Source: Pedobacter yonginensis (GTDB lineage Bacteria > Bacteroidota > Bacteroidia > Sphingobacteriales > Sphingobacteriaceae). Taken from it: a DNA stretch of 64,000 nt. The position numbers and the translations under genes were made by a program. The stretch lies in NCBI RefSeq assembly GCF_003173595.1, contig NZ_QGNZ01000001.1:62001-126000 (forward strand), written 5' to 3'. The notes beneath the pieces were generated by a model that saw nothing but the letters and a program-made list of their open reading frames with translations, was not told where the DNA came from and did not search any database. Below are positions 9,745 to 53,732 of this stretch, piece after piece; the first letter of the stretch is position 1, and each line of letters opens with the position of its first letter.

Positions 9745-10629
9745 ATGACACTAAAAACTGAGGATTTATCTCCCATCCAACTACAAGATTATTTGCAATA
9801 TGCCATTGCACCAAGACCAATCTGCTTCGCTTCTACAATTGATGCTGATGGAAATATCAATTTAAGCCCTTTCAGTTTTTTTAATATGTTCAGCACAAAA
9901 CCGCCAATTTGCATTTTTTCTCCGGCAAGGCGGGTGCGAGATAATACAACAAAACATACCTTAGAGAACGTTTTGCAGGTTAAAGAATGTGTGATCAATA
10001 TTGTGAACTACGATATGGTGCAACAGATGAGTTTAGCCAGCACTGAATATCCGAAAGGCATAAATGAATTTGAAAAGGCAGGGTTTACCATGGTAAAATC
10101 TGATATGGTGGGCCCACCCAGAGTAGCTGAAGCACCAGTTCAGTTTGAATGTGTGGTTAATGATGTGATTGCTTTGGGAGAAAATCATGGTGCAGGAAAC
10201 CTCATTTTGGCAGAAATCAAACTGATTCACATTAATGAAGATGTACTGGATCAAGATGGCAAAATAGATCAGAAAAAGCTAGATTTGGTTGCCCGTTTAG
10301 GCGGCGATTGGTATTGTAGGGTAACAGAAAGCAATCTCTTTAAAGTGGCCAAGCCTTTGGCCAAATTGGGTATCGGTGTAGATGCACTACCAAAAAGCGT
10401 TCGCCTTTCGAAAGTGTTAACTGGCAACGATTTAGGTATGCTGGGCAATGTTGAGTTTTTACCCAATGAAGAAGATATCGACTTGGTTAGCCGCCTCCCA
10501 GAAGTTAAAGAAATTTTAGATGCAACCATTGGCGATGCCACAAATAGAGAAAGAGAACTACACGAATTGGCCAAACAACTGCTTAAAGAAGGAAATATTG
10601 AACTTGCTTTAAAGATTGTTTTGCTTTAA
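9745..10629 (+). CDS. Flavin reductase family protein
   Basis: Protein of 294 residues with a flavin-reductase-like (split-barrel) domain in residues 15-190. The phosphate/FMN-binding region lies around APRPICFASTIDADGNINLS and PFSFFNMFSTKPP. The C-terminal 100 residues are helical and end in an ELHELAKQLLKEGN segment not found in the short members. Family members supply reduced FMN or act directly on small substrates. Its place next to the fumarylacetoacetase-family gene suggests an accessory role in aromatic degradation, which is inference only. Confidence 0.82.
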   Translation: MTLKTEDLSPIQLQDYLQYAIAPRPICFASTIDADGNINLSPFSFFNMFSTKPPICIFSPARRVRDNTTKHTLENVLQVKECVINIVNYDMVQQMSLASTEYPKGINEFEKAGFTMVKSDMVGPPRVAEAPVQFECVVNDVIALGENHGAGNLILAEIKLIHINEDVLDQDGKIDQKKLDLVARLGGDWYCRVTESNLFKVAKPLAKLGIGVDALPKSVRLSKVLTGNDLGMLGNVEFLPNEEDIDLVSRLPEVKEILDATIGDATNRERELHELAKQLLKEGNIELALKIVLL

Positions 10630-29653: not shown

Positions 29654-30337
29654 TTGGAATTACTACAACAGCTTTTAGATTTTATTCTTCATATAGACGT
29701 TCATTTAGCAGAAATTGTTAATGAATATCAAACCTGGACTTACCTCATTTTATTCTTAATTATTTTTGCAGAGACTGGTTTTGTGGTTACTCCATTTCTT
29801 CCCGGCGATTCTTTATTGTTTGCGATGGGTGCATTAATTGCTGGTGAGCATGAAACCGGTTTAAATATTTGGTTTATGCTAATTATCTTGATGGTTGCTG
29901 CAATTTTAGGTAATACGGTTAATTACAAACTGGGCAGTGTGTTAGGCGCTGGTGTTTTTAAAGAGAATAATAAAATTTTGAAGTTAAAATACTACCATCA
30001 ATCGCACGAATTTTTTGAGAAACACGGTGGAAAAGCGATTATGCTAAGTCGTTTTCTTCCAATTTTCAGAACTATCGCTCCATTTGTGGCGGGTATAGCT
30101 AAAATGCCATTCGGACGTTTTACTTATTACAACATCATTGGTGGTGTGACTTGGATTTTTGCCTTGTTGATGGGCGGCTTTTTGTTGGGTCAGATTCCAG
30201 TTATCAAAAACAATTTTGAATTGGTAATCATCTTCATTGCCGTTGTTACCTTTGTGCCAGCGGTTTGGGCAGCTATAAAAAGCAGAATGAAGCCCAAAAA
30301 GATTGAAGAGATGATAGAGGGTGAGGATTCAAAATAA
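29654..30337 (+). CDS. DedA-family membrane protein, TTG start
   Basis: Polytopic protein of 227 residues of the DedA/SNARE-associated family. Marks are ETGFVVTPFLPGDSLLF near residue 41 and the family motif FxRxxPxxR, here SRFLPIFRTIAPFVAG, near residue 137. DedA proteins are polyprenyl-phosphate or phospholipid transporters/flippases of the inner membrane. The TTG start is chosen because the encoded MELLQQLLDFILHID is a normal family start, there is no in-frame ATG before the conserved region, and a promoter box lies just upstream. Confidence 0.9.
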   Translation: MELLQQLLDFILHIDVHLAEIVNEYQTWTYLILFLIIFAETGFVVTPFLPGDSLLFAMGALIAGEHETGLNIWFMLIILMVAAILGNTVNYKLGSVLGAGVFKENNKILKLKYYHQSHEFFEKHGGKAIMLSRFLPIFRTIAPFVAGIAKMPFGRFTYYNIIGGVTWIFALLMGGFLLGQIPVIKNNFELVIIFIAVVTFVPAVWAAIKSRMKPKKIEEMIEGEDSK

Positions 30338-30339
30338 AC

Positions 30340-31296
30340 CTAAATTTCCCTGCCAATAAGCCTTCCTTTTTCTAGTTTTTGATTTAAATCACTTTCGTCA
30401 TCCTGTTCATCTGGTTGAAGATCAGTTTTAATTAAGTTTTTAAGTGTGGGCTGTCCGGCATCAACCCATGCAGAATACCAGTAAGAACCAATTTCTAAAA
30501 TTGCCGAACGCATTTGCCTTTCAACCATCTTATTAAGCGCATCATGGTAGGCCTTGGAGTATGCTAAGGAATATTGCTTAAGCACAGTATTGTTCCGTTC
30601 AGAAAAACTATACTTTTCATCTGAAGGGAATGAGCCACTTAACTTTGCCTCAAAAGTTAGTACGGTATCTACTAAGGAATGGGTGTGTTTGAGTATTTTC
30701 CAAGCCTCTTTCAGCGGATTTTCGATATAAATCGCTTTGCCTACCAAAAAACTATAATTGGTATGAAATAATTCTGGCAAGCGACTTTCCCAAAAAGCAT
30801 GGATGCCAACCTGATTGGTTAATTGCCCATTATGATTAGCTGTGGTGTGCAAAGGAACATGAGCATCGCCAATATAGTGTCCCAAATCTGCCGAATACTT
30901 CAATATCTTGATGGAATCCCTTGTTTTAAAAGCTTTTACCAAATTGAAGTAAGTTCTTTGAATTTGCCAAGGCACAATACCATTCTCATTCAATTTCTTT
31001 TGCGAATACTTATTCAGGGCATCATTCCACCGCTCCGGGATACTGTCTATATCCTTTTCGTAATTTTCTACATCAAGGTAGTGCCGTGGTGCCTCAAGTG
31101 TATCTGCATATCTTCGTTTATCTGGGTCAACGGCATGTTCGGTAATGTACTTGATGTTCTTTTTATAAAAGCCAATCATGCCATTCGGCAAAGTAAAAAT
31201 TGCCAGTTTATTGATGTGTTGATGGGCAAAGAAGCCCCAAGAAGTGCAGAGAAATAAAGGGATGATTAACGCCATTAATATCGTTAATCGTTTCAT
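30340..31296 (-). CDS. Zinc-dependent phospholipase C / S1-P1 nuclease-fold protein
   Basis: Exported protein of 318 residues. It has a signal peptide of about 19 residues and then W-GFFAHQHINKLA, where the mature N-terminal tryptophan and first histidine are typical zinc ligands. Further ligands sit in LGHYIGDAHVPLHTT (HxxxD...H) and GIHAFWE (HxxxE). This pattern is that of the trinuclear-zinc phospholipase C/S1-P1 nuclease superfamily. Whether it acts on lipid or nucleic acid cannot be told. The C-terminus is unusually acidic (DEQDDESD). Confidence 0.85.
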   Translation of the reverse strand: MKRLTILMALIIPLFLCTSWGFFAHQHINKLAIFTLPNGMIGFYKKNIKYITEHAVDPDKRRYADTLEAPRHYLDVENYEKDIDSIPERWNDALNKYSQKKLNENGIVPWQIQRTYFNLVKAFKTRDSIKILKYSADLGHYIGDAHVPLHTTANHNGQLTNQVGIHAFWESRLPELFHTNYSFLVGKAIYIENPLKEAWKILKHTHSLVDTVLTFEAKLSGSFPSDEKYSFSERNNTVLKQYSLAYSKAYHDALNKMVERQMRSAILEIGSYWYSAWVDAGQPTLKNLIKTDLQPDEQDDESDLNQKLEKGRLIGREI

Positions 31297-31363
31297 TGAG
31301 GGCTGGTATTGAGTATTTTATGAGGGCTAGCAATGCCCAGTTCCAAAGCGTGTGCTATACGTT

Positions 31364-31816
31364 TTATACGCCAAATTGGGTTAAATGGTGGTCTAAATGC
31401 TTATAAAACATATTGTTCCATTCGTTTGCAGTCAGTTTTCCAAAAGAATGTGATTCTTTTCCATCAAAATAACTTTCGCCCAATTGTTGTGTTTGGGTTA
31501 GGTGATTAATTAAGCGCGTTTTTTCTTTCTCAAATTCTTTTTCATCGGTAATAATAAATTGCGGAGCAGTTTTGCTATTTTTTGGAAAAGGTTGTTCGCC
31601 CACAACTTTGCTTTTAACAAAGCTTTTTAGAATAAACTTCAACAATGCATTTGGCTTCGGATGAATATCATCATAAACCATTTCGTAGGTAACGTTGCAA
31701 TGTGCCAGCATTTGAGCTACACTCATTTTTCCCCAAAGCGGAGGGGTGGTGGAGCTTAGTTTGTTAATTCTTTCAATAACCTCGTTGGTTACTGAAGGTT
31801 GGAAAATTCTCTTCAT
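31364..31816 (-). CDS. DUF1569 (DinB-like) protein
   Basis: Cytosolic helical protein of 150 residues. Phrases such as WGKMSVAQMLAHCNVTYEMV and YKHLDHHLTQFGV carry the spaced histidines of DinB-like metal sites. DUF1569 members are of unknown function and may be thiol-dependent transferases like other DinB-superfamily proteins. Confidence 0.8.
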   Translation of the reverse strand: MKRIFQPSVTNEVIERINKLSSTTPPLWGKMSVAQMLAHCNVTYEMVYDDIHPKPNALLKFILKSFVKSKVVGEQPFPKNSKTAPQFIITDEKEFEKEKTRLINHLTQTQQLGESYFDGKESHSFGKLTANEWNNMFYKHLDHHLTQFGV

Positions 31817-46054: not shown

Positions 46055-46453
46055 ATGTTAGTTCTAAATAAATTTTATGCCTGGTTGGGTGTTCTTTTGT
46101 GCGTAATAGCAGGGTTTTGCCCCATGCTTAAAGTTCCGATAAAAGGCAACTGGAATTTGTATCAATCTGATGCTCGCTTGTTTTTGATTACCTATGCACT
46201 CATCGCCATAGGCGTGCTTTTTCTATTTATCAGAAAAGTTGGTGCGTTTAGGTTTATGAGTTTTGTGATGGCTATTTGGTATGTTTTAGCCGTGGTTGCC
46301 GTTTACTTTACAGCCCATAATTATACGAAATATGGTTTTGCAAATAAACTAATCGGTAAAGTTGTTCACTTTCAATGGGGTTGGATTGTGCTCCTAGTTG
46401 GTGTTTTATTTATGCTTTTCAGCACAAAACGCGGACAGAAAATTACATCATAA
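46055..46453 (+). CDS. Small polytopic membrane protein
   Basis: Protein of 132 residues with four predicted membrane segments (about 10-25, 43-60, 68-87, 107-125). No family recognised. It ends two bases before the convergent lipocalin gene. Confidence 0.7.
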
Positions 46454-46454
46454 G

Positions 46455-46958
46455 CTAGCCTTTAAATTGCGAAGTAAGTTTGCTTACTTCGTAACCTTTG
46501 GCTTTGCATCTCGCCACAATTTCATCGTGCGTTTTCTTCGGAAGGCTATGGCTACGACTCATGATGAAAAGGAATTTATGGTCTGGATGGCCCACTACCA
46601 CGTACGAATAGTCATCGGCAAGTTCAATGATCCAATAATCAATCTTTATCGGCCAAATGAATTGAGCTTGTAATTCTCCGTTGTTTCCTTCTTCTGACGG
46701 GAACATTTTCGAGCTTCTAGAATAAACTTTCTCGTCGCCCGGCTTTTTATAGGTGGTGAGTACATCATAAAAGCCATCTTTGTTTAAAGTATATTTTGTT
46801 GTGGTTTCTCTGCTTCCTTTGTCAAAAATAGTTGGAATGGAATATAACGAATACCATGTTCCGGCGTACTTTTTTAAATCTAAATGGGATATGGGCGCAT
46901 TTTTTTCCACAGGCAAGTAGCTTAATAACACAAACAGAATGGCGCAAATCGTTTTCAT
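46455..46958 (-). CDS. Lipocalin-family protein (Blc-like)
   Basis: Exported protein of 167 residues with a signal peptide to about residue 18. The first lipocalin motif is KKYAGTWYSLYSIP (GxW) at about 29-42, and the end-of-barrel phrase is YSYVVVGHPDHKFLFIMSRS. It matches bacterial lipocalin Blc, which binds lysophospholipids, but the lipobox cysteine is absent (signal ends near YLPVEKNA), so it may be soluble in the periplasm. Confidence 0.85.
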   Translation of the reverse strand: MKTICAILFVLLSYLPVEKNAPISHLDLKKYAGTWYSLYSIPTIFDKGSRETTTKYTLNKDGFYDVLTTYKKPGDEKVYSRSSKMFPSEEGNNGELQAQFIWPIKIDYWIIELADDYSYVVVGHPDHKFLFIMSRSHSLPKKTHDEIVARCKAKGYEVSKLTSQFKG

Positions 46959-47008
46959 AACATCAATTGGGTTTGATATAATTTACGATGCGATTAAATA
47001 AATAGTTT

Positions 47009-48073
47009 TTAAAATTGGTTTTTTGCTTTCCAGATCAAACCATCAAGAACGTAATGGGTAGCTTGAGGCAATGCTAGGAGTGGAACAACTATGGATAATA
47101 ATTCTTCTGCCGTTAATCTTGGTAATGCTGAAAATGGCTTAAAAACTGTTGGATGCTCTTTCCAGATAAAACCGTCCCAAAGCCCTTCTTCTAAATAGGC
47201 AAAAGCGATGAGAATAATAATGAAATAAAACAGGCCTAGATTGCCAAAGCATATTTTGGCGAATTTGGATTTTAGTGTATTGTTTTTAAGCTTCTTTTTT
47301 TCGAAAAACCAAATTAGGGCCATATATGGAATCCCGTGAGAGACTACGTTTAATGTTGTAAAGGCCATATCTCCATTGAAGTAAACGATGCCAAAATACC
47401 AAGACAGAAATGTCCCCACGATAACCAGGTTTCTAGGGATATTAAATCTTTTCTCCATCATTATTAACTTCAATTCCTTTAATACGTAGATAAGGATTAT
47501 TGAAACATATACATAAACTGACACTTTAAGCAGGCTTTCATTTTCATAGCTTACGAAATCACCATCGATAAACCAATTAAAATTTCTGATGCCACTAAGA
47601 TGCCAGTAAATCAAAGGATAAACCGTTGCCGTATAAATAGCTATTTTATCTATCGTGGCGAATAGCCAGGACTGTCGTTCTGCTCGGGAATACAGGCGCA
47701 TAAATCCATATTGCTGCCTTATGAAGTGGTAAACTGCTAAATATGCCAATACACGCCAAAACCACAACCCATTAAATTGATAAATGATTACCCCAACTGT
47801 GTAGCATATTATTGGAGTGAAGATCAGCAATGACTTTTGCTTTTTTAGATTCTCACTATTGAAATACGTTCTGTATAAGGTACTATAAACATGGACAACA
47901 TCTATAAAAACAATCAAAATTACCCAATAGGCTAGTGGAAAATCCTTTGAGTTTTGAAATTTATCAGGGAAAACAAATACGATGAAGAGGGACAAAAACG
48001 GAGGCAATAGGATGAAAATAACATCACTTAACGCAGAATTTAACCAAGGCTGTCTTTCTTTAACCATTTGCAT
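47009..48073 (-). CDS. Polytopic membrane protein of the polyamine-linked operon
   Basis: Protein of 354 residues with eight or nine hydrophobic segments. Histidines sit in membrane-border positions (VVHVYSTLYR, YHFIRQQYGFMR, VVSHGIPYMALIWF, ALPQATHYVLDGLIWK), suggesting a metal or haem site. The last phrase HYVLDGLIWK recalls membrane desaturase/oxygenase-like proteins, but I cannot assign a family. Its start overlaps the end of the FAD enzyme gene by 14 bases, showing coupling; it is the last gene of the operon. Confidence 0.7.
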   Translation of the reverse strand: MQMVKERQPWLNSALSDVIFILLPPFLSLFIVFVFPDKFQNSKDFPLAYWVILIVFIDVVHVYSTLYRTYFNSENLKKQKSLLIFTPIICYTVGVIIYQFNGLWFWRVLAYLAVYHFIRQQYGFMRLYSRAERQSWLFATIDKIAIYTATVYPLIYWHLSGIRNFNWFIDGDFVSYENESLLKVSVYVYVSIILIYVLKELKLIMMEKRFNIPRNLVIVGTFLSWYFGIVYFNGDMAFTTLNVVSHGIPYMALIWFFEKKKLKNNTLKSKFAKICFGNLGLFYFIIILIAFAYLEEGLWDGFIWKEHPTVFKPFSALPRLTAEELLSIVVPLLALPQATHYVLDGLIWKAKNQF

Positions 48074-49718
48074 TTAGAACCTGTTTCGCTGCGTTTATAC
48101 CTTGATGGAAAGCCTCCTCGAAAATAGAAATGCCGCTTAAATCGCTGTGTGCGAAAAAAACTTTGTCTTCAAGTGAAGTTCTTGCCTTTTCTAGATTTTC
48201 ACTCCAAATGAAGTCTTTTCCTGGCGCAATCATACCATGACCCCATACCCAAAAATCTATTTTTTCGATTGATTGGGTGATGCCAGGATGTATAATTTCC
48301 AATTCGGGAATTACAATGTCAAGCCATTGCTCATAATTTCTAGAATATGCGGCTAGCCTTGCTACTGCTGGTTCAAAATCGCACAACGGTAGATAGTAAG
48401 TAAGTACCTTTTTATCATCAGACATTTCCAGATGTTGTTGCGCTGAATTTACATAGCCAACCGATGGAGTATCATAGGCTACGTTATCCCAGCAAAGGCC
48501 CCTCCCTTTTGATTGTGGTAATCGATTAAGGGTAATATTTGCAATTAACCATGGCGAGTAATTGAATGGAGAATAATCTATTGGTCTATGCAAATTTTTT
48601 ATTAAGCGATTATTTACGAATTGAGGCGATGCTAGAATTATGCTTTTGGCTTCAATTTTTTCAGTAATGTTAGATAAAGCGTTAAAAACTGTTGCTACGA
48701 TGTTTCCATTTGTAGCGTAATTTATTTCGCAACAAACCGTAGATGTTTTAATGTGTTTGCTAAGCTTTTGGGCGAGTTGCTTCATTAGCCAACCGTTTCC
48801 TTCGGGCCAAGTTAAAACAGCATTCTGCTCTGCATTAACAGCTGTTCCTCTCCTAGATGAAAAATAATGCAATCCGGCCCATGCAGATATTTTATCCAAT
48901 TGTTGGCCATAATCATCCTTACACGCATAGTTTAAATACCAAAGCAAGTATTTTGAAGTATATCCCTGTTCTTGTAGATACTTTTTAAATGTTATTTTGT
49001 CTAAATCCCTGTAATGTTGGTCAGTAGAAGATGAACTGATTGGGATATTAAATACAAACTTTCCATCGCTGCCTTTTGTGTTTTTTAGCTTGGTTGCCAA
49101 TGCTAAAAAATCTTTAATTTGTTGCTTGTCTTTATCCGGCAGGCCAAAATCTGGTATTAAGCCATCTTGCCACTCCCCATTTATAAGTAATCTCTCTTCT
49201 GGATCAAAAGTTAAAAAATAGTCGTTGTAATAGGGTATTTCATTTTCGAAATGCGTAATTACATTAGTTTCTTTCAGAAAATCGATTAACAATTCATCCT
49301 CGTTGTTAGCAACTGTAATATAATGAGCGCCTAATGGATAGGAAGAAACTTGGTTCGTCCCGAAATGTGAATTTCCACCTGGGTGTTTTTCCAATTCAAT
49401 TATTTCGAAATCTTCTTCTCCACTTTTTTGAAGCCACCTTGCTGCTGATAGCCCTGAAATGCCACTTCCAATAATTAAGGTTTTCACTTGCCTAACAACA
49501 GTTGGATCTGGCAAGTTGCTTTTATCCCTTAAAAGATGGCCAACTTTTGAGTTAGGGCCTGATAAGTTTCCTGTAATGTCATACTTGGATTTAATTTTCC
49601 TTAAACAGCCATTTATGATAATTCCCCCTGTAATTAACCCGACTCTTAATAAAAAAGAACGTCTTTTTAGATAGGTGGTTAAACTGCCTTTATAAAACGT
49701 TTGCCCACTCATCCTCAA
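48060..49718 (-). CDS. FAD-dependent amine-oxidase-like lipoprotein, probable Tat export
   Basis: Protein of 552 residues. The N-terminus has a twin-arginine pattern KRRSFLLRVG (R19-R20), a hydrophobic stretch and a lipobox-like IINGC (C38). The FAD-binding Rossmann motif is GSGISG at residues 84-89, followed by the acidic strand end ELEKHPGGN (about 108-116), as in flavin amine oxidases and protoporphyrinogen-oxidase-like enzymes. The C-terminal phrase VFFAHSDLSGISIFEEAFHQG with a glycine-rich turn completes the FAD site. It overlaps the spermidine-synthase-like gene by 29 bases and the next gene by 14. Polyamine oxidation outside the inner membrane is a reasonable guess, not shown. Confidence 0.82.
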   Translation of the reverse strand: MRMSGQTFYKGSLTTYLKRRSFLLRVGLITGGIIINGCLRKIKSKYDITGNLSGPNSKVGHLLRDKSNLPDPTVVRQVKTLIIGSGISGLSAARWLQKSGEEDFEIIELEKHPGGNSHFGTNQVSSYPLGAHYITVANNEDELLIDFLKETNVITHFENEIPYYNDYFLTFDPEERLLINGEWQDGLIPDFGLPDKDKQQIKDFLALATKLKNTKGSDGKFVFNIPISSSSTDQHYRDLDKITFKKYLQEQGYTSKYLLWYLNYACKDDYGQQLDKISAWAGLHYFSSRRGTAVNAEQNAVLTWPEGNGWLMKQLAQKLSKHIKTSTVCCEINYATNGNIVATVFNALSNITEKIEAKSIILASPQFVNNRLIKNLHRPIDYSPFNYSPWLIANITLNRLPQSKGRGLCWDNVAYDTPSVGYVNSAQQHLEMSDDKKVLTYYLPLCDFEPAVARLAAYSRNYEQWLDIVIPELEIIHPGITQSIEKIDFWVWGHGMIAPGKDFIWSENLEKARTSLEDKVFFAHSDLSGISIFEEAFHQGINAAKQVLNANG

Positions 49719-51201
49719 AGTATTTAACCAAAATTTGATTGTTTAATTTGTTAATCTGTGTTTCTACTTTACTCATATCCTTCGGAAAGAAAAGCATTAA
49801 GTTTACGCTCTCCCTTGATACAAATTTTAACCCTGGCAGGTACTGTTGAGGTTTTTTATATGGGTTATCGGGCTCAGTAGCTAAGATATAACCCCACTCT
49901 CCGAAAGATGGCACGTAATTATGATAGGGAATCGTTTTTAATCCAACACTTTCTAATGTTTTATTAACTGTCCAAAAAGATTTCGGTGCAACATAAGGTG
50001 AGGTTGATTGAACCACCATCAATCCCTTCGGTGCAAGAATGTTTTTAACCAATTTGTAGAATGAATTTGTGTATAATTTTCCCACTGCGTAATTTGATGG
50101 GTCTGGGAAATCAATTACAATAAAATCGAACTTTGTATGCTGTGCCTTAATCCAACTAAAGGCATCAGCATTTATAACTTTTACTTTTGGCGATAAAAGT
50201 GAGTTTTTGTTAATATCTAAAAGCATCTTGTTAGATTTAAAAAGGCTTGTCATTCCCTTATCTAAATCTACCAAGGTTACAGCGTTTACATTAGGGTATT
50301 TAAGAATTTCTCTTACAGCTAAACCATCGCCGCCACCCATTACTAAAACATGCTTTGCAAACGGTAAAGCCTGGAGTCCTGGATGTATTAATGCCTCGTG
50401 ATATCGATATTCATCGTCGGAACTAAATTGCAAGTTACCATTTAAAAAAAGTCTTAAAACCCTGTTTCTCTTTGTTAAAATTATGCGCTGATAGGGCGTG
50501 CTTTTTGAGTAAATAATGGTATCACTATAGGTTTGACGCTCTGAAAGACTTGTTATTAAATCGGCATTAACAAAGCCAATTAACAAGGCCATTAAGCTCA
50601 AAATTGAAGCGCTTTGTAAGTATTTAGAAGCTTTAATCTCTTTTTTGAAACTGAGACAAACAATTAAGGCTACAACAACATTGAGCATGCCAAACATAAA
50701 TGCTGTTTTAACTAAGCCTAAACGTGGAATCAACAATAGGGGGAAGATTAGTGAGGCGAGCAATGCACCGATGTAATCGAAAGTAAAAACCTTTGAAACC
50801 AAATCTTTAAATTCATACCGGTCTTTCAGGATTCGCATTAATAGAGGGATTTCTAAGCCGACCAAAATTCCCGTAAGACTTACAAATCCGTAAAGTACCA
50901 TCCGAAAGGAGGCAATGCTTTCAAAAACCAAAAACAAAATCGTTGCGCTGAAGCCTCCCACCAAACCCACTAATATTTCAATCTGTATGAACCATGAAAG
51001 TATATTTTTTTCAAAATATTTGGAAATCCAAGAGCCTATACCCATCGAAAAAAGGTACACGCCAATTATGGTTGAAAATTGGGTAACCGAATCACCCAAT
51101 AAATAACTGGCCAGTGTGCCCGCAATTAGCTCGTAAATTAAACCACAAGTTGCAACAACAAATACAGAAATTAATAAAAGTGCTGGAAGCTTTCTATTCA
51201 T
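49690..51201 (-). CDS. Membrane-fused spermidine-synthase-like aminopropyltransferase
   Basis: Protein of 503 residues. Residues 1-215 hold seven or so membrane segments. Residues 225-500 form a spermidine-synthase-type Rossmann domain with YQRIILTKRN, RYHEALIHP (267-274), MGGGDGLAVREIL (AdoMet-type loop, 288-300), an acidic VDLDKG, NADAF, and the catalytic-region IDFPDPSN (D364, D367). It would transfer aminopropyl from decarboxylated AdoMet, whose maker SpeD is encoded at the head of the operon. Its start lies 2 bases after the DUF350 gene stop. Confidence 0.88.
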   Translation of the reverse strand: MNRKLPALLLISVFVVATCGLIYELIAGTLASYLLGDSVTQFSTIIGVYLFSMGIGSWISKYFEKNILSWFIQIEILVGLVGGFSATILFLVFESIASFRMVLYGFVSLTGILVGLEIPLLMRILKDRYEFKDLVSKVFTFDYIGALLASLIFPLLLIPRLGLVKTAFMFGMLNVVVALIVCLSFKKEIKASKYLQSASILSLMALLIGFVNADLITSLSERQTYSDTIIYSKSTPYQRIILTKRNRVLRLFLNGNLQFSSDDEYRYHEALIHPGLQALPFAKHVLVMGGGDGLAVREILKYPNVNAVTLVDLDKGMTSLFKSNKMLLDINKNSLLSPKVKVINADAFSWIKAQHTKFDFIVIDFPDPSNYAVGKLYTNSFYKLVKNILAPKGLMVVQSTSPYVAPKSFWTVNKTLESVGLKTIPYHNYVPSFGEWGYILATEPDNPYKKPQQYLPGLKFVSRESVNLMLFFPKDMSKVETQINKLNNQILVKYFEDEWANVL

Positions 51202-51202
51202 G

Positions 51203-51427
51203 CTAACTGTGTATGGCAGAGCTAATAATAATAGCTATAGCGATAATAAATGCAGCAAAAACCACAGCTAGGGCCATGTTTTGCTTTTCTAAAATTTGTT
51301 TCCAAAGGTTTTCGGGGGTAATTTTTTCTATAATCCAGAAAGCCAGAAACAGTACCGCAATTCCTAAGGTGGAATATACCAAGGATGCAATGATGTACTT
51401 AATGTTAATTAGTTCATTTAAACTCAT
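51203..51427 (-). CDS. DUF350 membrane protein
   Basis: Protein of 74 residues with two membrane helices (about 11-31 and 50-72) and a short loop. The pattern matches DUF350 (the YjfL type), where the paired helices are repeated in longer members; this one has a single repeat. DUF350 genes are often next to DUF4178 and polyamine genes, as here. Molecular role unknown, possibly an ion or small-molecule channel. Confidence 0.82.
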   Translation of the reverse strand: MSLNELINIKYIIASLVYSTLGIAVLFLAFWIIEKITPENLWKQILEKQNMALAVVFAAFIIAIAIIISSAIHS

Positions 51428-51436
51428 ATGCTTTTT

Positions 51437-51610
51437 TTATTTGTGATAAAATCTATTTATGTGGCCAGAGTTACTTTTGTTTCCTGTAAACTCCGTGTTT
51501 TTTTCTACATCATCTTTATAAAATGCCAGGCCTTTTAAACCGCTATAACTATAAAAGGCAATAAGTATACAAATGGCTAATGCGTAATATTTAATCAGTT
51601 TTATATTCAT
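51437..51610 (-). CDS. 57-residue membrane-anchored peptide in the polyamine-linked operon
   Basis: ATG at 51608-51610, stop TAA at 51437-51439. It encodes MNIKLIKYYALAICILIAFY and a polar tail ending NRFYHK. One N-terminal membrane helix is followed by about 35 polar residues. The frame exactly fills the space between the DUF4178 gene (ending 51611, abutting) and the DUF350 gene (starting 51427, 9 bases away), which is strong positional support. Family not recognised. Confidence 0.72.
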   Translation of the reverse strand: MNIKLIKYYALAICILIAFYSYSGLKGLAFYKDDVEKNTEFTGNKSNSGHINRFYHK

Positions 51611-52924
51611 TTAATCTTCATTTACAAATGGTGAGTAGTCACTGTTATCCCATCTTCGCTTTTCGAAATTTCTCATCATGTACCAACAAACTGCTGGGTA
51701 AAGGCATAGTAGTAAGATGGTAATCAATGTATTACGCCACATTGTTACGTTGGCTGTGGCTTTTATGTATAGATTATTGCTATTGATATCGCCAGAGGAT
51801 GGGTAAACATTTAAATGGTATGTTCCTTTGGGAATATCTGATAAAAGAAGTGATTCTCTTGTTGATCCTTCGCTCCAACCCTCACCACCTTCATAGCCAT
51901 GATAATATTCGATGCTTTTGCTCACTTCCCAAGTTCTGTTATCCTTTTCGTTAACTAAAACGATGGTTGTTTCCAGCCAATTATTATCTACTGTCGTCGC
52001 GATTTCAAAAGCCACATTAGACGATTCGTCGTCTATAGTAAAGGAAGGCGTAATAAATGACTTGTAATCATTAACATCCTGTCTTTCATCGTGGCTGATT
52101 AGGAAATCGTTATTTAAAAGTTCCTTCTCAGGTTTTACTAGCCCGATTAAAAGGTGGATGATTAAAACAAGAACGATTGCAATCGCGGTTATTTGCAAAG
52201 CTGATTTGAATCTGTCGTATGCAATAGATGGCTGATTAGCACCAATTCCAATCCTTTCTGTTAAAATAATCTCATCAATCCCAAATGCATCTGCAATGGC
52301 CTTTGGCTCAAGATATTCGCCTATATAGTAATCTTTATTTCTGTAATTTGCAGATGTTTCGGCAACAACCATAAATGGAGGTGCTATGTATTCTTGTGCT
52401 TTAATTTTTTCATTCACAACATCCCAGTCAACTTCCCCCACCATAGCCGTAACAATTGGGGTATATTTGTTAAAGAGCCTGTATTCTATGTTCTTATAAT
52501 AAACAGATGGTGCTTGCACTGTGGGCTCTTCATAGTCTATTAGGAAGTCTTTGCCGCCAATCAAGTTCCAATGGCCGTCAAATTCTGATAAAGTAATGTA
52601 GCCTCTATCTTTACTCGTTAAAATGTATTCCCGCCAACAATAATCTGATCCCGCCTCCTTTTTTTCAAGATAAGCAATTAATTTAAAGTTAACATTATGA
52701 AAAGTAGCGGTACTACCAATCTTTAATACAGGCTTTTGTTCTGGTTTAACAAGCTGCCTGTTTAAACGAGAATAGTTGTTTGCAATAATGTGGAGATAAG
52801 AAAAGCACGAACCACATACCACATATTCGCTTTTTGATGGATCAAGAAGTGTTATGGTTTGTTTGCATACAGCACAATCAATAGTCTCTGATTGTGATGA
52901 AAATGATTTGATTGGTTCTTCCAT
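51611..52924 (-). CDS. DUF4178 protein with zinc ribbon and two membrane helices
   Basis: Protein of 437 residues. A four-cysteine zinc ribbon (C17, C20, C37, C40) is at the N-terminus. It is followed by DUF4178-type beta-rich modules, with repeated openings such as VLKIGSTATFHNVNFKLIAY and SVYYKNIEYRLFNKYTP. A membrane helix lies at about 242-263, then an extracytosolic beta-sandwich (about 270-400) and a second helix at about 402-424. Its start codon overlaps the speD stop codon. The family is unknown, but its pairing with SpeD and DUF350 is recurrent in bacteria as far as I recall. Confidence 0.85.
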   Translation of the reverse strand: MEEPIKSFSSQSETIDCAVCKQTITLLDPSKSEYVVCGSCFSYLHIIANNYSRLNRQLVKPEQKPVLKIGSTATFHNVNFKLIAYLEKKEAGSDYCWREYILTSKDRGYITLSEFDGHWNLIGGKDFLIDYEEPTVQAPSVYYKNIEYRLFNKYTPIVTAMVGEVDWDVVNEKIKAQEYIAPPFMVVAETSANYRNKDYYIGEYLEPKAIADAFGIDEIILTERIGIGANQPSIAYDRFKSALQITAIAIVLVLIIHLLIGLVKPEKELLNNDFLISHDERQDVNDYKSFITPSFTIDDESSNVAFEIATTVDNNWLETTIVLVNEKDNRTWEVSKSIEYYHGYEGGEGWSEGSTRESLLLSDIPKGTYHLNVYPSSGDINSNNLYIKATANVTMWRNTLITILLLCLYPAVCWYMMRNFEKRRWDNSDYSPFVNED

Positions 52925-53277
52925 TAACGAACAATCTCAGTTTTCTTAATTTCCTTACCCTCAAAAAAATGTAAAACAGCCTCATATATCTGTTTTACTT
53001 TTTCACTATTGTCTTTTTGGTAGTTTGATAAGAAAACGTCAAATGTGGCTAATTTAAATTCGGGCCAGGTATGGATTGATAAATGTGATTCAGTTAAACA
53101 AATTACGGCTGTAAAGCCACCACCAGCAAAATTATGATAAACCTCACCAACTTTTTCCAAACCATTATCAATGATTAAATTGTTGAAGAGTGTCTTGCAA
53201 TCATTAAAAGAAGAAAGTTGTTCGTTACAATCAGAAGTGAACTCTGATAAAATGTGTAACCCCGGATTATAGTTCAT
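52924..53277 (-). CDS. speD: S-adenosylmethionine decarboxylase proenzyme, with Ser in place of the catalytic Cys
   Basis: Protein of 117 residues from the ATG at 53275-53277 (MNYNPGLHILSEF, the normal family start). A longer frame from 53337 adds 20 unrelated residues. The self-cleavage site is E63-S64 in TESHLSIHTWPE, where S64 should become the pyruvoyl group, and the processing histidine is H69. The position of the usual catalytic Cys in the phrase DVFTCG reads DVFLSN, so it is Ser84 (codon TCA). The product, decarboxylated AdoMet, would supply the aminopropyltransferase in the same operon. A -7 box TAATTTTG at 53296-53303 (minus) suggests this is the first gene of the operon. Confidence 0.88.
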   Translation of the reverse strand: MNYNPGLHILSEFTSDCNEQLSSFNDCKTLFNNLIIDNGLEKVGEVYHNFAGGGFTAVICLTESHLSIHTWPEFKLATFDVFLSNYQKDNSEKVKQIYEAVLHFFEGKEIKKTEIVR

Positions 53278-53295
53278 TTGAGCGTTTTGTAAACT

Positions 53296-53303
53296 CAAAA
53301 TTA
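53296..53303 (-). promoter_or_regulatory. -7 box TAATTTTG of the speD operon
   Basis: Exact TAnnTTTG match on the minus strand, 18 bases before the speD ATG at 53277. It lies inside the 60 extra bases of the longer frame, so it supports the shorter start. No good -33 TTG was found. Confidence 0.5.
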
Positions 53304-53348
53304 TAAATTTTTTTAAACCATAAAAGATTTGGAACAATAAATTTATCG

Positions 53349-53732
53349 TTAATCAGCTACAAAGTAATCGTCATCCTCGCTTTCTAATGGAATGTACAAT
53401 CTTTCCCATTCATCACCTTCTAATAGCTCCCAACTATGGCCAGGGCCCATTGTATCATCGGCGATTAATATGATGCCAGGTTCTATGATAAAGGTATTGC
53501 CATTGCTTACTGTAAATTTCAGTTTGCCTTTTAAAGTAATTACGTACTGCCTGCGGGGAGCAGGATGTTGGCTATTTTGTAGAGAAACATCTGTTTGCGC
53601 AAAAAAGTAGTTGGCGTTGATGTGTTGTTTAATGGGTAGTCGTCCGATTTCAAAATCGCATTTTTCCGCTTCAACATTAATTAAACGGATGGCTCTTAAA
53701 TAATTTTTGGCTTCGGCTTGATTGCTATTCAT
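53349..53732 (-). CDS. Cupin-domain protein
   Basis: Small cytosolic beta-barrel protein of 127 residues. The cupin region is residues 45-115 with the phrases VITLKGKLKFTVSNG and FIIEPGIILIADD. The usual metal histidines are largely absent, so it may bind a ligand without metal. It lies on the same strand before speD but the speD promoter box separates them, so membership of the operon is uncertain. Confidence 0.78.
   Translation of the reverse strand: MNSNQAEAKNYLRAIRLINVEAEKCDFEIGRLPIKQHINANYFFAQTDVSLQNSQHPAPRRQYVITLKGKLKFTVSNGNTFIIEPGIILIADDTMGPGHSWELLEGDEWERLYIPLESEDDDYFVAD

What the first reader, a model, noticed from the sequence alone, without database searches (positions are those of the whole stretch)
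47009..53277. Seven-gene membrane polyamine operon: SpeD, DUF4178, small peptide, DUF350, fused aminopropyltransferase, Tat FAD lipoprotein, polytopic protein
The genes are on one strand and abut or overlap (speD/DUF4178 share a base, DUF350 to synthase 1-base gap, synthase/FAD enzyme 29 bases, FAD enzyme/last gene 14 bases), so they act together. SpeD makes decarboxylated AdoMet and the fused enzyme has the GGGDG aminopropyltransferase site behind seven membrane segments, so product would be made at the membrane. An exported FAD enzyme of the amine-oxidase fold and a zinc-ribbon DUF4178 protein complete a pathway that could make, modify and oxidise a polyamine or an aminopropylated lipid or peptide at the cell surface. 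I know of recurrent DUF350/DUF4178/SpeD neighbourhoods in bacteria, but not of this full set with the oxidase. The product is unknown.
Basis: partly seen in the sequence, partly recalled or inferred. Interest (0 to 1): 0.75.

Follow-up and report, generated by a model that had tools for sequence, protein, structure and literature searches.

The report
Lysine-tipped membrane peptide and its modifiers
A bacterial operon pairs a membrane enzyme that is predicted to transfer aminopropyl groups with a tiny membrane-anchored peptide that ends in lysine, and the enzyme likely builds a polyamine tail on that lysine, which would answer what this enzyme family works on.

Summary
The seven genes are there as described, and the two "extra" genes (FAD enzyme, polytopic protein) are conserved members: in 395 genomes of the phylum all 15 FAD homologues and all 11 true orthologues of the last gene lie in such an operon. 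It is membrane-anchored; its body drifts but its end does not: 31 of 31 operon copies end Tyr-His-Lys-stop, 101 of 101 database relatives end His-Lys. The rule reaches further. Of 55 loci of the 7-helix aminopropyltransferase read in four phyla, 52 encode an anchored partner (small peptide or lipoprotein) ending in lysine (FYHK, SHK, GGK, FGK, SGK and others), against 6-16% of other ORFs. Two of the three exceptions stand beside an ATP-grasp ligase and end Gly-Gly, as do E. coli YgiB and YjfM, neighbours of peptide-spermidine ligases: the tail fits the enzyme. My reading: SpeD makes dcAdoMet, the transferase (catalytic domain predicted outside) aminopropylates the C-terminal lysine, the exported FAD enzyme oxidises the product. 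The core operon and "aminopropylation of other substrates" are in print; seven paper searches listed nothing on a lysine tail. The chemistry is untested.

The parts
52924..53277 (-). speD, class 1b AdoMet decarboxylase homologue, 117 aa from the ATG matching relatives (frame open to 53337 with a TTG start)
   Evidence: PF02675 71 bits; pyruvoyl-type ESHLSIHTWPE kept, active-site Cys replaced by Ser; only SpeD found in the genome
51611..52924 (-). zinc-ribbon + DUF4178-type protein with two hydrophobic segments, 437 aa
   Evidence: 13 of 15 alignment members hit PF13785; C17 C20 C37 C40 invariant; in one frame with the K-tail in relatives L106 and L093
51437..51610 (-). 57-residue membrane-anchored peptide ending FYHK-stop; proposed acceptor
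   Evidence: 31 of 31 operon copies end YHK; 101 of 101 database relatives end HK
51437..51451 (-). codons of the FYHK C-terminus and stop; Lys57 is the proposed aminopropylation site
   Evidence: amino acids fixed while codons vary synonymously
51203..51427 (-). short DUF350 membrane protein, 74 aa
   Evidence: PF03994 56 bits; present in 14 of 22 scan loci
49690..51201 (-). 7-helix membrane domain fused to aminopropyltransferase domain, 503 aa
   Evidence: PRK03612 681 bits, Spermine_synth 129 bits; GGGDG, D364 and D367 invariant; 7 helices and positive-inside charge pattern
48060..49718 (-). FAD enzyme of the amine-oxidase fold with twin-arginine signal and lipobox cysteine, up to 552 aa
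   Evidence: PF01593 43 bits; R19, C38 invariant; 15 of 15 homologues in 395 genomes are beside the transferase
47009..48073 (-). polytopic membrane protein, 354 aa, six invariant histidines, no known family
   Evidence: 11 of 11 orthologues in 395 genomes in the full operon; relatives in 7 of 20 Acidobacteriota loci

Best explanation
The operon encodes a small membrane-anchored peptide that ends in Tyr-His-Lys together with the enzymes that likely modify it: SpeD is predicted to make decarboxylated AdoMet, the seven-helix aminopropyltransferase would move its aminopropyl group onto the side-chain amine of that last lysine, and the exported FAD enzyme would then oxidise the new amine at the outer face of the membrane. 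Shown by sequence: gene set and order, hydrophobic anchor, invariant C-terminal lysine, amine-oxidase fold and export motif of the FAD enzyme. Predicted: the catalytic domain of the transferase lies outside the cytoplasm, so decarboxylated AdoMet would have to cross the membrane, perhaps through the seven-helix domain or DUF350. Inferred: the acceptor, the order of steps, the FAD reaction. The DUF4178 protein would hold or sense the peptide (the two are one frame in two relatives) and the histidine-rich last protein would finish the product. The result would be a polyamine-tipped surface peptide, which sister systems may reach with a different enzyme, the ATP-grasp peptide-spermidine ligase acting on a C-terminal glycine.
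For: Fixed tail: 31 of 31 YHK-stop with synonymous codon variation; 101 of 101 HK. Rule across the transferase family: 52 of 55 loci read have an anchored partner ending in Lys, background 88 of 547, 8 of 143 and 4 of 66. Where an ATP-grasp ligase is present the partner ends GG (L099, L100; E. coli YgiB, YjfM). HK is kept in operons without FAD and last gene (L094, L095). DUF4178 and K-tail in one frame (L106, L093). Only SpeD and only aminopropyltransferase over cut-off in the genome. Topology: 51 of 54 transferases have 7 helices, in 51 of 51 K+R lie on the side that puts the catalytic domain out. FAD and peptide homologues are tied to the transferase in 395 genomes.
Against: No chemistry seen. 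Partner loci are related, not independent, and partners were picked by position and by eye. Three of 55 lack a K-tail partner (L099, L100, L143). The 101 relatives had to share 5-residue words with the query. SpeD was not found within about 5 kb of the transferase in 11 of 20 Acidobacteriota loci nor beside some lipoprotein-type ones. This clade's SpeD has Ser for the active-site Cys, so its activity is open. An outside catalytic domain needs export of decarboxylated AdoMet, for which nothing is shown; the charge bias of the peptide itself is weak. The transferase model was too poor to test the acceptor site. FAD and last gene are missing from some operons, so their steps are guesses.
Confidence: 0.57

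Rival explanations
1. The operon makes a free or lipid-linked polyamine for the envelope; the small peptide is only an accessory subunit of the transferase or DUF350 complex, and its tail a docking motif.
For: The transferase keeps the GGGDG site and Asp pair of polyamine-making relatives. A short invariant C-terminus can also be a docking motif.
Against: The lysine end is shared by partners with otherwise unlike tails and sizes (49-aa peptides to 240-aa or larger lipoproteins), and gives way to Gly-Gly where the enzyme is an ATP-grasp ligase; a docking motif would not need to end in the acceptor group of each enzyme.
Confidence: 0.17
2. The tail is not modified; the positively charged lysine end senses or binds anionic lipids or a released polyamine and reports envelope stress, as proposed in general terms for PspA-linked relatives.
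For: Related operons carry PspA-type genes and have been proposed to monitor polyamines (PMC11237479, passages).
Against: Charge alone would allow arginine or several lysines; I saw lysine at the last position in 52 of 55 loci, and Gly-Gly in the ligase type.
Confidence: 0.13
3. The C-terminal carboxylate or the neighbouring histidine, not the lysine side chain, is the acceptor.
For: His precedes Lys in one group of tails; aminopropylation of a non-amine group in the peptide antibiotic microcin C is recalled.
Against: Many tails have Gly, Ser or Val before the lysine and no His there (GGK, FGK, SGK, RVK); only the lysine is common to all 52.
Confidence: 0.06

Closest known systems
SpeD / membrane-fused spermidine-synthase-like / DUF350 / DUF4178 operons (Li et al. 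2019, recalled and seen only as a citation; PMC11237479, passages read)
   Same: Same core genes; 'aminopropylation of other substrates' already suggested there
   Different: Window operon lacks the PspA/CesT-Tir pair, has a 57-aa peptide in place of the lipoprotein, and adds the FAD enzyme and a new polytopic protein; the C-terminal lysine rule is not in the passages read and the word lysine does not occur in the text
E. coli YgiB/YgiC and YjfM/YjfC peptide-spermidine ligase systems
   Same: DUF350 and PspA-type neighbours in the yjf operon; an envelope protein with a conserved-type tail beside a polyamine-attaching enzyme
   Different: Ligase is ATP-grasp and the partner ends Gly-Gly, not Lys
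Prodigiosin oxidoreductase PigB (NF053556)
   Same: FAD enzyme residues 273-548 match at 45.7 bits
   Different: Far below the family cut-off of 850 bits; a distant relative only
Deoxyhypusine/hypusine and silaffin lysine-polyamine modifications (recalled)
   Same: Polyamine carried on a lysine side chain of a protein
   Different: Different enzymes, internal lysines, eukaryotic or archaeal proteins

Membership tests
SpeD / 7TM-aminopropyltransferase / DUF350 / DUF4178 operons | 7-helix domain fused to spermine-synthase domain | tested here: met
SpeD / 7TM-aminopropyltransferase / DUF350 / DUF4178 operons | DUF350 and DUF4178 genes in the operon | tested here: met
   DUF350 directly; DUF4178 through 13 of 15 relatives, not the window protein itself
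SpeD / 7TM-aminopropyltransferase / DUF350 / DUF4178 operons | PspA and CesT/Tir pair (PMC11237479, second group) | tested here: not met
   No such Pfam match among the ten ORFs scanned at 46055-53732
ATP-grasp peptide-spermidine ligase system | GSP_synth ATP-grasp ligase gene | tested here: not met
   None among the ten ORFs scanned; present in L100
ATP-grasp peptide-spermidine ligase system | Partner protein ending in glycine | tested here: not met
   Peptide ends FYHK
Spermidine synthase | GGGDG and catalytic Asp pair | tested here: met
Spermidine synthase | Makes spermidine from putrescine | not testable with these tools
   Needs assay; fusion relatives reported not to replace it (Li 2019, recalled)
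Class 1b AdoMet decarboxylase | Pyruvoyl-forming serine motif | tested here: met
   ESHLSIHTWPE aligned to 1tlu/1vr7
Class 1b AdoMet decarboxylase | Active-site cysteine | tested here: not met
   Ser at that column in the window and close relatives; Cys in L049-L055 and L093-L095
Ribosomally made, enzyme-modified peptide (RiPP-like) | Short precursor with a conserved core encoded beside its modifying enzymes | tested here: met
Ribosomally made, enzyme-modified peptide (RiPP-like) | Modified residue in the product | not testable with these tools
   Needs mass spectrometry
Known membrane enzyme family (last protein) | Match to a family model or solved fold | tested here: inconclusive

The most novel reading that the evidence does not exclude
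The 7-helix-fused aminopropyltransferases as a whole are protein-modifying enzymes: they build a polyamine on the C-terminal lysine of a dedicated envelope-anchored peptide or lipoprotein, at the outer face of the membrane, using exported decarboxylated AdoMet. With the ATP-grasp ligases that cap a C-terminal glycine they form two convergent routes to polyamine-tipped surface proteins, a new class of bacterial C-terminal protein modification; in the version seen here the new amine is then oxidised by the exported FAD enzyme and finished by a new histidine-rich membrane enzyme.
Probability: 0.48. Interest if true: 0.93.

Novelty: new variant of a known kind. Interest (0 to 1): 0.8.

Why it matters
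What the membrane-fused spermidine-synthase-like enzymes of bacteria act on has been open since they were reported not to replace spermidine synthase (Li 2019, recalled). The lysine-tail rule names a candidate acceptor and residue, predicts the mass change (+57.058 Da per aminopropyl), and explains why DUF350-containing cassettes travel with either a transferase or an ATP-grasp ligase. If right, bacteria carry covalent polyamines on envelope-anchored proteins.

Full report
What is there. The seven minus-strand ORFs are as described: speD, a zinc-ribbon DUF4178-type protein, a 57-residue peptide, DUF350, a 7-helix membrane protein fused to an aminopropyltransferase domain (here APT), a twin-arginine/lipobox FAD enzyme, and a 354-residue polytopic protein. 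Families. The window's DUF4178-type protein misses PF13785 but 13 of 15 alignment members hit it. The genome has one SpeD match, and one aminopropyltransferase over the family cut-off (a second, 21-bit match lies below it).

The set is a real unit. A genome scan with the FAD protein gave 23 loci. In L002-L023, APT, FAD, last gene, peptide and DUF4178-type gene are found in 22 of 22 (some cut by contig ends), speD in 21 (L016 starts inside the operon), DUF350 in 14 and not in eight (L015-L021, L023). The 23rd, L024, is a contig end with part of the FAD gene. In 395 genomes of the window's phylum: APT in 29 at E 1e-60 or better; FAD in 15 at 1e-50, all 15 beside an APT (0-0.7 kb); last gene in 20, of which 11 are true orthologues, all 11 in the full operon (window, L046-L055), eight are distant relatives elsewhere and one (G363) is a decayed fragment. 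The peptide model matches 15 genomes, 14 in the operon and one (G033, 31 positions inside a longer frame, no APT match) that I take as chance; it misses the peptides of G002, G291 and G378, found by eye. In Acidobacteriota a 36-39% homologue of the last gene follows the FAD gene in 7 of 20 loci read; in Novosphingobium FAD gene and speD follow the APT.

The overlooked gene. In 31 operon copies (window, L002-L023, L048-L055) the peptide ends FYHK-stop (28) or YYHK-stop (3), with codons varying synonymously. In an alignment of 28 of them mean column identity is 42% and only four columns are invariant: G27, Y55, H56, K57. Of 101 database relatives all end HK: 63 FYHK, 36 YYHK, 1 YHHK, 1 YQHK; candidates there had to share 5-residue words with the query, and some come from genomes already counted.

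The rule beyond this operon. I read the partner at 55 APT loci: all 29 in the phylum sample, 20 of 38 positive Acidobacteriota genomes (38 of 199 searched), and 6 of 13 plasmid records (Gemmatirosa, Novosphingobium, Burkholderia, Tritonibacter, Ensifer, Alteromonas). Partners end in lysine in 52 (27, 19 and 6): FYHK/YYHK, SHK, YQHK, YHHK, HYHK, and elsewhere RSGGFGK, SGSFGK, GGSGGK, LRGGK, GGK, SGK, RHGK, RVK, ESGK. Each has a hydrophobic stretch (best 17-residue mean 1.1-2.6 in the 51, a few weak; window), several a lipobox. Partners were taken by position (anchored ORF next to DUF350, APT or the DUF4178-type gene) and by eye. Exceptions: L143, no partner found; L099 and L100, below. Background of a C-terminal lysine among ORFs of 150 aa or more: 88 of 547 in the phylum sample's loci, 8 of 143 in Acidobacteriota, 4 of 66 in plasmids (these counts include some of the lipoprotein partners). 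The loci are related, so I give no p-value.

The telling exceptions. In L099 and L100 the APT is divergent from speD, an ATP-grasp ligase (GSP_synth 256 bits in L100) and a partner ending RSYGG. E. coli YgiB ends SMGG and YjfM HWGG; RefSeq names their neighbours YgiC and YjfC peptide-spermidine ligases, after Pederick 2023 (title in the reference lists of PMC12568646 and PMC10948618; paper not read). An amide-forming ligase goes with a glycine carboxylate, an amine-alkylating transferase with a lysine amine.

Variants. Operons with neither FAD nor last gene keep HK (L094 NYQHK, L095 SYHHK); with FAD only: L093 SGSHK, L096 RYYHK, L097/L098 NHYHK. In Acidobacteriota loci with the last gene the tail is GGK or SGK, so the FYH part is not tied to that gene. 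Lipoprotein-type operons (L103-L110, L160, L161, L120) lack both. Thus the lysine goes with the APT; FAD enzyme and last protein are later additions.

Mechanism. SpeD is predicted to make dcAdoMet, with the reserve that its active-site Cys is Ser in this clade and that in 11 of 20 Acidobacteriota loci no SpeD was found within about 5 kb. APT keeps GGGDG and the Asp pair. Hydropathy finds 7 helices in 51 of 54 APTs and in 51 of 51 the K+R-rich loops are those on the N-terminal side, which puts the catalytic domain outside (the three 6-helix counts point the same way). The FAD enzyme's signal also points outside, as does a lipobox on partners; for the peptide itself the charge bias is weak. DUF4178 and the K-tail share one frame in L106 (Pfam 52.7 bits) and L093 (29.3 bits; hhalign E 2e-7 to the family; an internal start cannot be excluded), so DUF4178 likely holds the peptide. 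That the FAD enzyme oxidises aminopropyl-lysine and that the last protein, with six invariant histidines in 43 sequences, is a metal enzyme are guesses from fold and residues.

What is known. [quoted passage not shown] 'Lysine' does not occur in its main text. Seven paper searches listed nothing on a lysine tail. So: a known operon kind, a new variant with two more genes, and a new, testable claim about its substrate.

Noticed in passing
window 52924-53277; L002-L023, L046-L048, L096 versus L049-L055, L093-L095: SpeD of the window's clade has Ser (DVFLSN) where AdoMet decarboxylases have the active-site Cys; the others listed keep Cys (DVYLCN type)..
   Followed up: partly
L015-L021, L023: DUF350 is not found between peptide and transferase in eight of 22 loci although the rest of the operon is kept.
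   Followed up: no
L056 (G363) 9848-10170: A same-family genome keeps only a decayed fragment of the last gene; no other operon gene was found in the 20 kb around it.
   Followed up: no
L057-L064: A distant family (20-24% identical) of the last protein lies outside such operons in other families of the phylum and keeps similar His motifs by eye.
   Followed up: partly
L049-L055, peptide gene: These peptides carry an extra Cys-Asp-Cys right after the membrane segment, a possible metal or disulphide site.
   Followed up: no
window 46455-46958 (-): A Blc-type lipocalin gene follows the operon 50 bases downstream on the same strand and is found there in eight of 22 scan loci (L002-L009; only fragments in L005).
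   Followed up: no
window 49690-51201, residues 278-420: PADLOC model mad2 matches the transferase's nucleotide-binding region at 60 bits; probably a shared fold.
   Followed up: no
G474:C53 (L143 and 30176-31489): One Acidobacteriota contig has two transferase genes about 5 kb apart on opposite strands; no peptide was found near the first.
   Followed up: no
L099, L100: Both a transferase and a GSP_synth ligase stand back to back beside one Gly-Gly-ending partner; the transferase may extend an amine placed there by the ligase.
   Followed up: partly
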